From contig NZ_FOMR01000001.1 in the NCBI RefSeq assembly GCF_900112705.1, positions 1-64,000 of the forward strand: DNA of 64,000 bases. The letters are read 5' to 3'. Under the pieces are notes generated by a model. It was not told where the DNA came from and searched no databases. It saw only the letters and a program-made list of their open reading frames with translations. Numbering within the stretch: the stretch's first letter is position 1; the number at the start of each line of letters is the position of its first letter. This document shows, piece by piece, positions 246 through 58,445 of the stretch. This stretch comes from Lentibacillus persicus. GTDB lineage: Bacteria; Bacillota; Bacilli; Bacillales; Amphibacillaceae. The position numbers and the translations under genes were made by a program.

Positions 246-559
246 AATATTCACATAAGAGCACTAAAGGTTGAAAGCTTGTAACCCAATTTACACATAA
301 CTATGGACTTGACTAAATATGTGCTGGAGAGAAGAATTATCAGCCCGAGAACGGAAATTTCGTCCCGAGAGCAAAAGTATCAGCTCGAGCGAGGGTTGCG
401 CCTTTTAGCACTTAACGACAATCAGAAAGGGAGAATTTTCACTGGTTCGCACTTCCGCATTTTGTGACAAAATCCTGCAATTCCATTAACACCCGCTGCT
501 CTTCTTTTGTTACAATAAAATCAGTTATACTATCTTTTTTACATAAGGAGGCAGTCAAT
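246..559. other. Gene-free stretch upstream of fumC
   Basis: Apart from array I, this interval holds a solo end of the dispersed foldback repeat at about 424-452 (core GAATTTTCACTGGTTCGCAC). That end matches the right end of the element at 38250-38281 and, inverted, the left end at 22872-22903. The rest, 470-556, is AT-rich and presumably carries the fumC promoter; I see no unambiguous -35/-10 pair. Confidence 0.6.
315..394 (+). repeat. 20-bp-period array I (four units)
   Basis: Unit cores start at 321, 341, 361 and 381, exactly 20 bp apart: GTGCTGGAGA, CAGCCCGAGA, CGTCCCGAGA and CAGCTCGAGC, each preceded by TAT/ATT-type sequence. This is the smallest member of the array family also found at 17321, 29215, 30555 and 58160. 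The core (N)GC(C/T)(C/G)GAGA corresponds to (A/T)(A/G)CAGAAGA in the other arrays. No coding potential is evident. Confidence 0.75.
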
Positions 560-16765: not shown

Positions 16766-17320
16766 GCTTTAAGAAGCAAGAGGATGACAATGCATCTAAC
16801 GTTGGGGACTTCGTAATTCTTGTTAAACCGCATCTGCTCTTTAACGTGATTACAAAAACCAGTTTGTCAGCATCCCAAATGACTTGGGGTTTTGGCAAAA
16901 AGGTTTAAAGCATTAGATGGAACGTTAGATCGGCTTTACATCACGTATGATGTTCAGCTTTAAGATCTGTTCTGACAATCACCTAATTGTCGATCACAAA
17001 CACCTCATTTGTGTGCAATACGAAATTATATGATGTTGTACATCCCCTTAACTTCATTTATAGTCTGTCGCATCGGTACATTTATTATACATATTTATGT
17101 TTTTTTATTTAGCTGTTATCGTGTATTATTTTTACCTACTCCGCGCATTAGATGTGAATTGCGACGGAGTGAAAATTAATTAGCCTCTCGAGCGACGCAG
17201 CTGGAATACCCGGGTGCTCGCCGTCTGCAGGTGATTTCAGAGAAGCAGGATTCCTCGCAGATCGTAGCATGTTCAGCGAAGTGTTGCTTTGTGCTCGTCG
17301 TTTTACGCGGCCCCGTGCTG

Positions 17321-17510
17321 AAGCATCCGCTCTCCGGAACATATTTTTGTTCTCCGGCACATATTTCAGCTCTCCGGCACATATTTTTGTTCTCCGGCGC
17401 ATATTTCAGCTCTCCGGAACATATCTCTGCTCTCCGGAACATATTTTAGCTCTCCGGAACCTATTCCCGCTCTCCGGCGCATATTTCTGCTCCCCGCCCC
17501 CCGATTTCTG
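17321..17510 (-). repeat. 20-bp-period array II (nine units)
   Basis: Units TCTCCGG(A/C)(A/G)CATATNNNNN start at 17331, 17351, 17371, 17391, 17411, 17431, 17451, 17471 and 17491, with an exact 20-bp period. On the minus strand the core reads ATATGTGCCGGAGA, equivalent to ATATCAACAGAAGA of arrays III-V. Non-coding: the period is not a multiple of three, so all frames stay open by chance. Confidence 0.88.
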
Positions 17511-17661
17511 CTTTTTTCAGGAAGCGGTCTGTCCTTCAGAGATATCACAGCAAAGTACGTCGCAGTTTATGGAAACTGTCGAATGGCAACGATGAGTTTG
17601 TTTTGTTATGCCGCTGTAATCGTGGTAAAATTTAACTAAGTGAAAATTGGGAGGCGCGCTT

Positions 17662-29214: not shown

Positions 29215-29372
29215 GATATCGACAGAAGGAGCGAAGAATCTTCAGAAGAGAAATTATATCAACGGTAGAATGATAATATCAACAGAAGACCGGGAAAATC
29301 AACAGATGAGCGATAATATCACCAGAAGAAAAAATTTATCTGCAGAAGATAGGCTATATCACTAGAAGAATA
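29215..29372 (+). repeat. 20-bp-period array III (eight units)
   Basis: Units begin at 29221, 29241, 29261, 29281, 29301, 29321, 29341 and 29361: GACAGAAGGA, TTCAGAAGAG, AACGGTAGAA, AACAGAAGAC, AACAGATGAG, ACCAGAAGAA, TGCAGAAGAT and ACTAGAAGAA, most preceded by (T)ATC. It is collinear with array IV at 30555. Its last unit contains the stop codon of the NERD gene. Confidence 0.9.
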
Positions 29373-30411
29373 GTGGCCCTTCAAAAATTGAACTATTAAT
29401 ATGTGGAAATGAGGAATTTTGTGGAAAATCACTCATATACGGCGCGTAGTATTTCCTTCCTTTATTCCGTCCATCGTGTTGAAGATGCATGCTGTTTAAA
29501 AGGGTGTGAGCCGTTCTTGGTGAATCAATCTGCAGTATTTCCCGGCATTCTTTATTTGTGATTGTAGGTCCATGAAGAAGAAAATAGTCTAATATAACCC
29601 TTTGATGAGCTTTAAAGGATGTTGAATAACAATTTGGGCATTGCCATTTTTTATATAATCGCTTCATAGGGTAATGCTGGCATCTCTCACAAGGTATCCC
29701 TTTTATCAAATGTCGTTCAGTTAAATGATGCTTCTGCAATAAGTCTGTCCGAAGTGCAGTATCTTCGTGCAATAACGTTTTGCACAGATTTCTCAAATCC
29801 GCTTTTGTAAATTGTTCCTCTGTAAAGTTATTGTTCAATCGATCCAAGTGCTGGTGCAAACTTTCATTGTGAATTATTTTCTTATAAACATCTGGATCCT
29901 CCCTGACGTTCTCAATAATCGTTGAGGGAAAAGCAACCACTACAAGGGTTTCAATCGGAATATTATATTTTGCCTTATTTTCCATCCAGCTGACTAGATG
30001 TGCTTTTTGGGCTTCAGCCTGAAGTATCGGATCTTTAAAAGACTTCGTTTCGCCGTTAATTTCTTGTGTTAGTTGCTGCTGTTTGGAATCATACTTAAAT
30101 GTTCCTTTTTTATTTTTAATTTCGAGAATGCAGATGAATTTTTTTGTCAGGAGGAGCGTGTCTATTTGAAAATGAAACGGAGGGTTTGCCAACCGGAGAC
30201 CTTGAAAAATGAAGAGATTTTTATGTGGGTAAGTAGAAAGTTTGTAGTCAACGTTTCTTTCGCCGTCATAACCGGCTTTTTCCCGTTTGTATGCTGAAAC
30301 TATGGAATCGTTTAGCCAATATTCTTTTAAAATGCGCCGGAACATTGCCTCATAAGCTAACAATTTATGCGTCTTTGTTCTGTATTTAACTGTTATGGAA
30401 TTCAAAGTCAA
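29362..30411 (-). CDS. NERD-domain protein with C-terminal zinc ribbon
   Basis: A 349-residue predicted nuclease-related protein. The NERD domain (about residues 45-165) has the restriction-like pattern GYDGE (Glu51), FQIDTLLLTKK (Asp84) and CILEIKNKKG (Glu97-x-Lys99). A zinc ribbon with Cys241/244 and Cys258/261 and a helical tail follow. ATG at 30411 follows AAAGGAGTG. The gene sits between two collinear repeat arrays in direct orientation and is absent from this place in B. subtilis, so it is likely an accessory insertion. NERD proteins are suspected DNA-processing enzymes; the role here is unknown. Confidence 0.83.
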   Translation of the reverse strand: MTLNSITVKYRTKTHKLLAYEAMFRRILKEYWLNDSIVSAYKREKAGYDGERNVDYKLSTYPHKNLFIFQGLRLANPPFHFQIDTLLLTKKFICILEIKNKKGTFKYDSKQQQLTQEINGETKSFKDPILQAEAQKAHLVSWMENKAKYNIPIETLVVVAFPSTIIENVREDPDVYKKIIHNESLHQHLDRLNNNFTEEQFTKADLRNLCKTLLHEDTALRTDLLQKHHLTERHLIKGIPCERCQHYPMKRLYKKWQCPNCYSTSFKAHQRVILDYFLLHGPTITNKECREILQIDSPRTAHTLLNSMHLQHDGRNKGRKYYAPYMSDFPQNSSFPHINSSIFEGPLFF

Positions 30412-30554: not shown

Positions 30555-30730
30555 ACACCAGCAGAAAATGACCAGAATCTGCAGAAGAGAACATAAATCA
30601 ACAGAAGAATGAGAATATCAACAGAAGACCGGGGAAATCAACAGATGAGCAAATATATCAACAGAAGAAAAAATTTATCTGCAGAAGACTAACGATATCG
30701 ACAGAATAAAGGGAATATCAACAGAAGCAT
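30555..30730 (+). repeat. 20-bp-period array IV (nine units)
   Basis: Units begin at 30560, 30580, 30600, 30620, 30640, 30660, 30680, 30700 and 30720, with an exact 20-bp period and core ATCAACAGAAGA. Units 3-7 match units 3-7 of array III even in the normally variable hexamer (for example GACCGGG, GATGAGC and GAAGAAAAAATTTATC). Confidence 0.9.
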
Positions 30731-30746
30731 CACCGTCCTATCTAAT

Positions 30747-32634: not shown

Positions 32635-32961
32635 AAAGTAAAACTTCATTCAGTGGAAGGGTTTTATTCCACTGAATGTTAGTTGACCTTATCAGACATT
32701 TAGGGCCAGTTAACCGCCGTATTCTGGCGGATTAGTGGCCATTATATGGGTGGAAAAGTAAAACTTCATTCAGTGGAAGGGGTTTGTTCCACTGATGAAG
32801 AGGAACAAAGGCTAAGTTCGCAACATCGTGTTGCAACGCCTTTGTGACCTGCATCGTGCAGGCCCGAACTTATCAGACATTTAGGGCCAGTTAACCGCCG
32901 TATTTTGGCGGGTTAGTGGCCATTATATGGGTGGAAAAGTAAAACTTCATTCAGTGGAAGG
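32635..32961. repeat. Tandemly duplicated hairpin element (two copies plus a truncated third)
   Basis: Copy 1 (32635-32754, 120 bp) and copy 2 (32755-32935, 181 bp) both begin AAAGTAAAACTTCATTCAG and end CATTATATGGGTGGAA; a third copy stops after 25 bp. Each copy has hairpin A (TCAGTGGAA/TTCCACTGA, 32650-32675) and hairpin B (GGCCAGTTAACCGCC/GGCGGATTAGTGGCC, 32704-32740). Copy 2 carries an insertion at about 32795-32871 that could fold into a three-way junction. Confidence 0.88.
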
Positions 32962-58159: not shown

Positions 58160-58445
58160 GGTATAGATATCGTCAGAAGAGCGTGGATATCAGCAGAGAG
58201 CGTGGGTATCAACAGAAGAGCGTGGATATCAGCAGAAGATCGTGGATATCAGCAGAAGAGCGTGGATATCGTCAGAAGAGCGTGGATATCAACAGAAGAG
58301 CGTGGATATCGTCAGAAGAGCGTGGGTATCTGCAGAAGATCATGGATATCGTCAGAAGAGCGTGGATATCAGCAGAAGATCGTGGATATCAACAGAAGAG
58401 CGTGGATATCAGCAGAAGATCTGAAATATCAATAGAAGTTCAAGA
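58160..58445 (+). repeat. 20-bp-period array V (fourteen units)
   Basis: The largest and most regular array: unit GGATATC-NN-CAGAAGA-GCGT, with NN varying (GT, AG, AA, TG). Units begin at 58172, 58192, 58211, 58231, 58251, 58271, 58291, 58311, 58331, 58351, 58371, 58391, 58411 and 58431; only the second unit is 19 bp. All three forward frames stay open through most of it because the unit has no stop codon and is not a multiple of three. Confidence 0.95.

What the first reader, a model, noticed from the sequence alone, without database searches (positions are those of the whole stretch)
58160..58445. A family of exact 20-bp-period intergenic arrays with a shared degenerate core
Five arrays (315-394, 17321-17510, 29215-29372, 30555-30730, 58160-58445) repeat a 20-bp unit 4 to 14 times with almost no length error. 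Aligned, the core is ATAT-S-NN-CMGRAGA followed by a hexamer that varies between units. Each array has its own dialect: CAGCCCGAGA, GTGCCGGAGA or AACAGAAGA. A constant period with a drifting core is unlike microsatellites and unlike CRISPR, whose spacers are longer and unique. Twenty bp is close to two helical turns, so sites would face nearly one side of the DNA, as expected for a cooperatively bound protein or a phased structure. I do not recognise a described family; function is inference.
Basis: partly seen in the sequence, partly recalled or inferred. Interest (0 to 1): 0.72.

Follow-up and report, generated by a model that had tools for sequence, protein, structure and literature searches.

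The report
Nuclease genes with cognate repeat arrays
The 20-bp repeat arrays look like one half of a two-part genetic element of bacilli: copies of a gene for a probable DNA-cutting, DNA-binding protein are bordered by their own matching family of 20- or 21-bp repeats, which is also scattered through the genome.

Summary
In detail: among periods 14 to 44, only 20 bp and its double give arrays in the window. They are part of a two-part system. The gene at 29362-30411 (minus), between two of the arrays, encodes a NERD nuclease domain, a four-cysteine ribbon and a winged-helix-like end. In related bacilli such genes are bordered by 20/21-bp arrays (25 of 30 loci; DegV control 3 of 30). Each lineage has its own core: in a 462-kb sample of this genome, 16 of 21 dispersed arrays match the flanks of one of its seven NERD loci. 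Between genomes, flanks are alike in 81% of locus pairs with winged helices at least 60% identical, and in 0-2% below 50%. The two arrays around a gene often share unit order; another species has one lone array at the same site, matching both. The 20-bp arrays mostly point from origin to terminus (35 of 35, 19 of 20 and 26 of 33 clusters in three genomes); the 21-bp families do not obey this uniformly. Best reading: a self-propagating nuclease-iteron element, with lone arrays as targets or scars. Association and pairing are shown; binding, cutting and movement are inferred. No description was found in the papers searched.

The parts
58167..58445 (+). Lone array, 14 units, CAGAAGA dialect, between an alpha-amylase-family gene (+) and degV (-)
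   Evidence: matches the flanks of the NERD gene at 29362-30411 with z=29.7
29216..29375 (+). Left array of the NERD locus, 8 units; its last unit holds the NERD stop codon
29362..30411 (-). NERD-zinc ribbon-winged-helix-like protein, 349 aa (P0001); conserved E51, D84, E97, K99 and C241, C244, C258, C261
   Evidence: Pfam PF08378 E=8.1e-18; alignment of 55 homologues
30555..30734 (+). Right array of the NERD locus, 9 units; same unit order as the left array
17325..17484 (-). Array of 8 units, CCGGAGA dialect, between hit-like (-) and ecsA-like (+) genes (gene names recalled)
   Evidence: matches the flanks of the second NERD gene, C2:88867, z=44
17144..17575 (-). Dispersed element around the 17-kb array: about 90 bp before and 170-180 bp after the array are conserved in four copies in the genome; limits approximate
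317..396 (+). Short loose array, 4 units, mixed dialect
   Evidence: R1 match E=5.2e-14, but it was among the rows of the model

Best explanation
The arrays are the repeat half of a two-part, self-propagating element; the protein half is a NERD nuclease with a zinc ribbon and a winged helix. The winged helix binds the 20- or 21-bp unit (two helical turns, so bound copies line up on one face), much as a Rep protein binds iterons, and each NERD lineage has its own unit. The nuclease cuts or nicks at or beside its arrays; repair by copying from another array spreads units, makes dialects alike within a genome and sometimes carries the NERD gene along, giving array-gene-array. Recombination between the two direct arrays, or loss of the gene, leaves a lone array such as 58167-58445. 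Shown here: association of gene and arrays, cognate pairing, shared unit order, a lone array at an orthologous site, different dialects at orthologous sites, replication polarity of the 20-bp class. Inferred: binding, cutting, copying by repair.
For: 20/21-bp arrays within 500 bp in 25 of 30 NERD loci (both sides 12), DegV control 3 of 30 (both sides 0); 65 of 116 NERD flanks peak at period 20/21, 4 at another, control 2 of 60. 16 of 21 sampled dispersed arrays of this genome match the flanks of its NERD loci. Flank similarity follows winged-helix identity, 0 of 999 permutations. Nuclease and cysteine residues conserved in 55 proteins. Left and right arrays share unit order in 21 loci. Orthologous site with and without the gene; a lone array keeping the gene-side unit and about 24 bp resembling the NERD 3' end. 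Orthologous gaps with different dialects.
Against: No movement, binding or cutting was observed. The gene evolves under purifying selection (dN/dS 0.07-0.19 in the 5 of 28 pairs not saturated), which also suits a host function. Not found in phage or plasmid records. Some NERD loci show no array by TRF (5 of 30; L228 and L230 among 20 more loci). G003 and G011 have 20-bp arrays but no close NERD gene. Gene and array are co-inherited: the NERD-domain part correlates with the arrays as well as the winged helix does (0.31 and 0.32), so specificity through the winged helix is not proved. Gain and loss of the gene at the pepF site cannot be told apart.
Confidence: 0.5

Rival explanations
1. Defence. 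The NERD nuclease is an effector held on, or made self-tolerant by, chromosomal arrays; it cuts DNA when arrays are lost or on DNA that lacks them.
For: Weak similarity of the NERD part to PglW of BREX (E=0.0051 NCBIfam; 0.0014 PADLOC) and of two paralogues to MAD6 (3.4e-06 and 8e-07); papers treat PglW's NERD as a nuclease effector (passages of PMC12839542). Purifying selection.
Against: All these matches are far below the curated cut-offs. It does not by itself explain scattered and duplicated arrays. Neighbours checked by Pfam beside the window arrays are housekeeping genes.
Confidence: 0.16
2. A host function in chromosome organisation or segregation: polar arrays read by a translocase or segregation protein, with NERD as a helper.
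For: Origin-to-terminus polarity of the 20-bp class: 35 of 35, 19 of 20 and 26 of 33 clusters, following replication rather than transcription (12 against 0).
Against: No such array found in G004 and few in G002. Outside arrays the core is little skewed: CCGGAGA 35 against 28, CMGRAGA 232 against 121, while GAAGAAG is 247 against 51. Other families in the same genome are not polar (10 same, 6 opposite). The cognate nuclease is unexplained.
Confidence: 0.14
3. Arrays are ordinary minisatellites that grow by slippage; NERD genes merely settle in or beside them.
For: Local homogenisation and 40-bp higher-order units look like slippage or unequal exchange.
Against: Slippage does not fix the period at 20/21 (21 of 22 arrays of the own sample), nor pair each core with a gene. 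Density is 11 per 600 kb in NERD-bearing against 2 per 600 kb in NERD-less genomes; the share among all arrays, however, did not differ (Fisher p 0.43).
Confidence: 0.1
4. Arrays are promoter or operator arrays through which the NERD gene regulates itself and neighbours.
For: The right array lies 144 bp before the NERD start; on the minus strand units resemble -35/-10 pairs, best 11 of 12.
Against: 6 promoter-like sites against 5.1 in shuffles. Array rows lie in convergent gaps 39 times and divergent ones 11 times of 104, so many cannot serve a promoter.
Confidence: 0.1

Closest known systems
REPIN-RAYT systems (abstract of PMC3116915 seen)
   Same: Short extragenic repeats scattered in a genome, several families side by side, each tied to its own protein gene nearby.
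   Different: REPs are palindromic and paired as hairpins with a tyrosine transposase; here units are direct, 20/21 bp, in arrays, with a NERD nuclease; two of three arrays tested fold no better than shuffles.
Iteron-Rep pairs of plasmids (recalled)
   Same: Direct repeats of about two helical turns beside the gene of a winged-helix protein.
   Different: No Rep family in Pfam; chromosomal, many copies; no plasmid record matches the protein or the 58-kb array.
Homing endonuclease elements and solo-LTR cycles (recalled)
   Same: Gene-bearing and gene-free forms of one site; direct repeats bordering the gene; broken copies of the gene.
   Different: No intron, intein or reverse transcriptase was seen; the target is a repeat array.
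Strand-polar guide motifs KOPS/SRS (recalled)
   Same: Polarity from origin to terminus.
   Different: Arrays rather than single octamers; the core is little skewed outside arrays.
NERD proteins such as SmdA and PglW (passages of PMC9040797 and PMC12839542)
   Same: NERD domain.
   Different: SmdA is a membrane protein and PglW a kinase fusion; neither passage set mentions repeat arrays.

Membership tests
NERD family (PF08378) | Domain match over the curated cut-off | tested here: met
   65.4 bits against 22.1
NERD family (PF08378) | PD-(D/E)XK-like catalytic residues | tested here: met
   E51, D84, K99 in all and E97 in 85% of 55 proteins; reading as catalytic is by analogy
NERD family (PF08378) | Nuclease activity | not testable with these tools
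   needs a bench test
REPIN-RAYT | Palindromic or hairpin repeats | tested here: not met
   z 1.11 and 0.29 as DNA for two arrays; the 17-kb array folds somewhat better than shuffles (z -1.53 DNA, -2.20 RNA)
REPIN-RAYT | Tyrosine (HUH) transposase | tested here: not met
   only NERD in the window protein at E 0.001
REPIN-RAYT | Repeat families each tied to a protein gene | tested here: met
Iteron-Rep | Direct repeats of 17-22 bp beside the gene | tested here: met
Iteron-Rep | Replication initiator protein at a plasmid origin | tested here: not met
   no Rep domain; no plasmid match
CRISPR | Repeats separated by unique spacers of about repeat length, with cas genes | tested here: not met
   14-bp core with a 6-bp variable part, often shared between units; no cas family among the 10 window neighbours scanned
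KOPS/SRS guide motifs | Polarity with replication | tested here: met
   20-bp class only
KOPS/SRS guide motifs | Single-copy motif strongly skewed genome-wide | tested here: not met
   CCGGAGA 35 against 28; CMGRAGA 232 against 121 outside arrays, in 602 kb of own genome
Homing element | Empty and occupied forms of one target site | tested here: inconclusive
   lone array in G011 against array-gene-array in five genomes; gain and loss not separable
Rfam families | Match at gathering score over an array | tested here: not met
   one match in the window, elsewhere (32796-32862)

The most novel reading that the evidence does not exclude
A new class of autonomous genetic element of bacilli: a NERD nuclease that recognises its own 20/21-bp iteron array and spreads by cutting chromosomal DNA, so that arrays, sometimes with the gene, are copied (in the 20-bp class at replication forks with fixed polarity), and that rewrites the dialect of its lone arrays throughout a genome. 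Several such nuclease-array lineages live side by side in one chromosome.
Probability: 0.38. Interest if true: 0.93.

Novelty: categorically new. Interest (0 to 1): 0.86.

Why it matters
NERD domains are widespread and hardly studied; a 2022 paper states that their role in bacteria had, to its authors' knowledge, not been studied (passages of PMC9040797). Here one lineage comes with its probable DNA target written beside the gene, in dozens of pairs, so specificity can be read and tested. It accounts for most of the minisatellite-like arrays sampled in this genome (16 of 21), offers a bacterial case of satellite-like concerted evolution, and makes the question why arrays face one way relative to the fork testable.

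Tried and rejected
Considered and rejected or put low: CRISPR (no spacers); a described RNA family; palindromic REPs; guide motif as the whole story; phage or plasmid origin (no match, each only for the sequence queried); plain slippage.

Led nowhere or discarded: the scanner was far too permissive and was replaced. One search was spoiled by padding letters that aligned with each other and was replaced. Foldseek gave no match at E 0.001 or better for a model of mean pLDDT 62.8; winged-helix regulators appear with E of about 0.16-0.4, a hint only. The first density comparison (0 against 3 arrays in 200 kb each) was enlarged to 600 kb each (2 against 11); 5 of the 11 come from genomes of the window's own genus, and the share of 20/21-bp arrays among all arrays did not differ (Fisher p 0.43). 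Scarcity of arrays near the terminus of G007 was not significant (KS p 0.08). Removal of the seven flank-sharing elements from the G000 polarity count (23 of 26) was decided after seeing the exceptions; the full count is 26 of 33. In the distant paralogues alone the opposite-strand control also correlates somewhat (0.18 against 0.26).

Rows dropped: two palindromic double detections at C9:419k; three clusters on contigs without assigned leading strand; seven duplicate copies among 66 genes; loci L200, L212 and L230 gave no open frame of 220 aa and are absent; four proteins under 300 aa are absent from the 55; loci with less than 150 bp on a side were skipped, and loci scoring under 50 not printed; two upstream flanks shorter than 300 bp were left out of the 116. 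Searches with R1 score only a capped number of candidates (78 or 150 per genome), so array counts are lower bounds.

Full report
OBSERVATION. The arrays are there and are not due to chance. Self-similarity in the window was scanned for periods 14-44: only 20 and its double 40 give arrays, at 17.3, 29.2, 30.6 and 58.2 kb. Units read ATAT-S-NN-CMGRAGA plus six variable bases; the 17-kb array is on the minus strand. Two-unit patterns hit the genome 65 and 109 times against 0 for reversed controls. A sequence model of four units (R1), built from ten window segments, gives 90 matches at E 0.01 in this 3.3-Mb genome (the building segments match by construction, and only 150 of 1788 candidates were scored).

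DISTRIBUTION. R1 finds such arrays at E 0.001 in 14 of 60 related genomes: 11 of 12 in the genus, own genome included (none in G004), 3 of 24 in other genera of the family, 0 of 24 outside it. An exact two-unit pattern against 84,980 species genomes hit 26 stretches in ten species, all named Virgibacillus, Lentibacillus or Oceanobacillus, and nothing in viral contigs. The 58-kb array has no match in phage or plasmid records.

ORIENTATION. Array neighbourhoods were fetched in the own genome, G007 (one contig) and G001 (four contigs). The leading strand was taken from dnaA and, for G001 and ten own contigs, from GC skew and coding strand; the terminus was placed opposite the origin (G007) or in the array-free middle (G001). 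The array strand equals the leading strand in 35 of 35 clusters in G001, 19 of 20 in G007 and 26 of 33 in G000. Four of the seven G000 exceptions are among the flank-sharing elements described next. Transcription does not explain it: among arrays between two genes read against replication, 12 follow replication and none follows the genes; between two genes read with replication, 32 follow both and 3 neither.

COPYING. BLAST of flanks showed: (a) arrays at C12:17325, C12:415417, C11:29925 and C16:80436 share about 90 bp before and 150-185 bp after the array, with unrelated sequence beyond, a dispersed element; C12:128707 shares part of it and C11:65796 with C12:397958 form a related pair. (b) Orthologous gaps hold arrays of different dialects in different species, for example C12:356094 (CAGAAGA), G007:668976 (ATATGGGC...) and G001:2251806 (TATCAGGAGAAGA) (dialects). 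(c) Arrays lie on both sides of one kind of gene: 29362-30411 in the window, C2:88867 in the same genome, and counterparts in G001 and G007.

THE GENE. It encodes 349 aa with a NERD domain. In 55 homologues G50, E51, D84, K99 and four cysteines (241, 244, 258, 261) are invariant and E97 is in 85%: the pattern of a PD-(D/E)XK-type nuclease plus a zinc ribbon (reading by analogy). The winged-helix label for the C-terminus rests on the residue pattern, on predicted secondary structure and on non-significant Foldseek matches. Homologues at E 1e-10 occur in 43 of 60 relatives but 4 of 299 genomes drawn over the phylum, own genome included, and in no plasmid or phage record. No solved structure matches by sequence at E 1. 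dN/dS is 0.07-0.19 in the 5 of 28 pairs where synonymous change was not saturated. Several copies are broken, for example G007:351579-352452 and G001:1032716-1033704.

GENE AND ARRAYS BELONG TOGETHER. In 30 NERD loci, one per genome, a 20/21-bp-type array lies within 500 bp in 25, on both sides in 12; in 30 DegV loci of a search over the same 60 genomes in 3 (one of them the 58-kb array), on both sides in 0. With a measure open to periods 12-35 on 59 NERD genes, 65 of 116 flanks peak at 20 or 21 with at least 60% self-match, 4 at another period; of 60 control flanks 2 peak at all. Twenty further stretches with distant paralogues (about 30% identity) mostly show 21-bp arrays with other cores; L228 and L230 show none by TRF. 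So the 20-bp arrays of the window are one branch of a larger family.

COGNATE PAIRS. The own genome has eight NERD matches at seven loci. In a sample not chosen for arrays (window plus 20 stretches, 462 kb), 21 arrays outside the window's NERD locus were compared with the flanks of the seven: 16 match, with z from 6.7 to 44; five do not. The second-best family is mostly near the null level, but ties for L167:18350 and is close for L179:5718. Over 1431 pairs of loci from different genomes, flanks are alike (score 40 or more) in 81% of pairs with winged helices at least 60% identical, 42% at 50-60%, 1% at 40-50%, 2% at 30-40% and 0% below; opposite-strand control 5, 3, 1, 0 and 0%. Spearman 0.32 (control 0.05), permutations 0 of 999. 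Among distant paralogues alone the figures are 94%, 46%, 1% and 0%, Spearman 0.26, with a control of 0.18. The NERD-domain part correlates equally (0.31): the data show that gene and array go together; they do not prove which part of the protein reads the unit.

LIFE CYCLE. Flanks left and right of the gene match in direct orientation in 41 and in inverted orientation in 6 of 59 loci. In 21 of the 32 loci whose flanks align at score 50 or more, they align clearly better than block-shuffled versions, so unit order is shared (59 genes less those with short flanks were examined). The gap between the amine oxidase gene and pepF was compared in 13 genomes (arrays on the far side): array-NERD-array in G000, G005, G006, G008 and, broken, G007; one array without NERD in G011 (9 units), G002 (6) and G003 (3 recognised); two decayed units, seen by eye, in G001; an array of a different 21-bp core in G010; none seen in G009 and G012; no amine oxidase neighbour in the fetched stretch of G004. 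In G011 units 2-7 match both G000 arrays at the same rank (1-4 mismatches), unit 1 is nearer the left array, units 8 and 9 match the right one. An untouched target or a recombinational excision would look alike. A lone array at C2:64806 keeps the left array's gene-side unit (1 mismatch) and, by eye, about 24 bp resembling the NERD 3' end, beside another gene: a partial copy.

CO-OCCURRENCE. By hand: close NERD genes (41% identity or more) and R1-type arrays occur together in 12 of 60 genomes, arrays alone in 2 (G003, G011), the gene alone in 3 (G004, G015, G017, which have arrays of other cores beside the gene), neither in 43. Relatedness of the genomes was not corrected for. Density of 20/21-bp arrays: 21 in 462 kb of the own genome (one array of other period), 11 in 600 kb of eight genomes with 3-8 NERD matches, 2 in 600 kb of seven genomes without (Poisson 0.001, but Fisher on the share among all arrays 0.43, and three of the eight genomes are of the own genus).

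POLARITY OF GENE AND OTHER FAMILIES. By hand: close NERD genes of G000, G001 and G007 lie on the lagging strand in 6 of 6 cases, distant ones on the leading strand in 12 of 13. The dispersed arrays matched have the same leading-strand orientation as the flanks of their NERD locus in 10 of 16 cases, so strict polarity belongs to the 20-bp class (and the four CGTGCGAG arrays seen), not to all.

MECHANISM. I favour a self-propagating nuclease-iteron element. Binding, cutting and copying by repair are inferred from domain content and footprints. Purifying selection and strict polarity of one class would also suit a host function; polarity could come from copying at forks.

PRIOR WORK. Searches of the held library: NERD domain with tandem repeats and nuclease, 0; NERD domain-containing protein with repeats, 0; Lentibacillus with tandem repeat, 0; four terms on 21-bp intergenic repeats in Bacillaceae, 0; wider searches with no relevant title among those listed; ten papers with both NERD terms (listing); REPIN-RAYT (listing). 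I saw passages of PMC9040797, PMC10910872, PMC12839542, PMC12802215 and PMC10556750, and the abstract and outline of PMC3116915. None of what I saw describes NERD genes bordered by arrays. Most subscription journals and preprints are not in the library.

Noticed in passing
window 32796-32862 (+): Bacillaceae-1 RNA (RF01690), 74.5 bits, the only Rfam match in the window.
   Followed up: no
window about 1-200 and G000:C15 end: 191 bp before the 317 array are identical to a stretch after the C15:19012 array in opposite orientation, probably a shared transposable-element end (inference).
   Followed up: no
G000:C11:1, C13, C15, C22:1: Arrays lie at or near contig ends, so short-read assembly probably breaks in them.
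   Followed up: no
own genome, 602 kb sampled: GAAGAAG is the most leading-strand-skewed 7-mer outside arrays (247 against 51); from memory it equals the KOPS motif of Lactococcus lactis. Codon use may explain it.
   Followed up: no
L286 (G010, pepF site): The gap that holds 20-bp arrays in other species holds a 21-bp array of a different core here: the same gap is used by different families.
   Followed up: partly
G000:C9:419181-419520: Array units with a palindromic TTCCGGAA core, detected on both strands.
   Followed up: no
G007:C1:2725563-2725962: The only anti-polar arrays of G007 have a variant core (GGGCCGGTGC).
   Followed up: no
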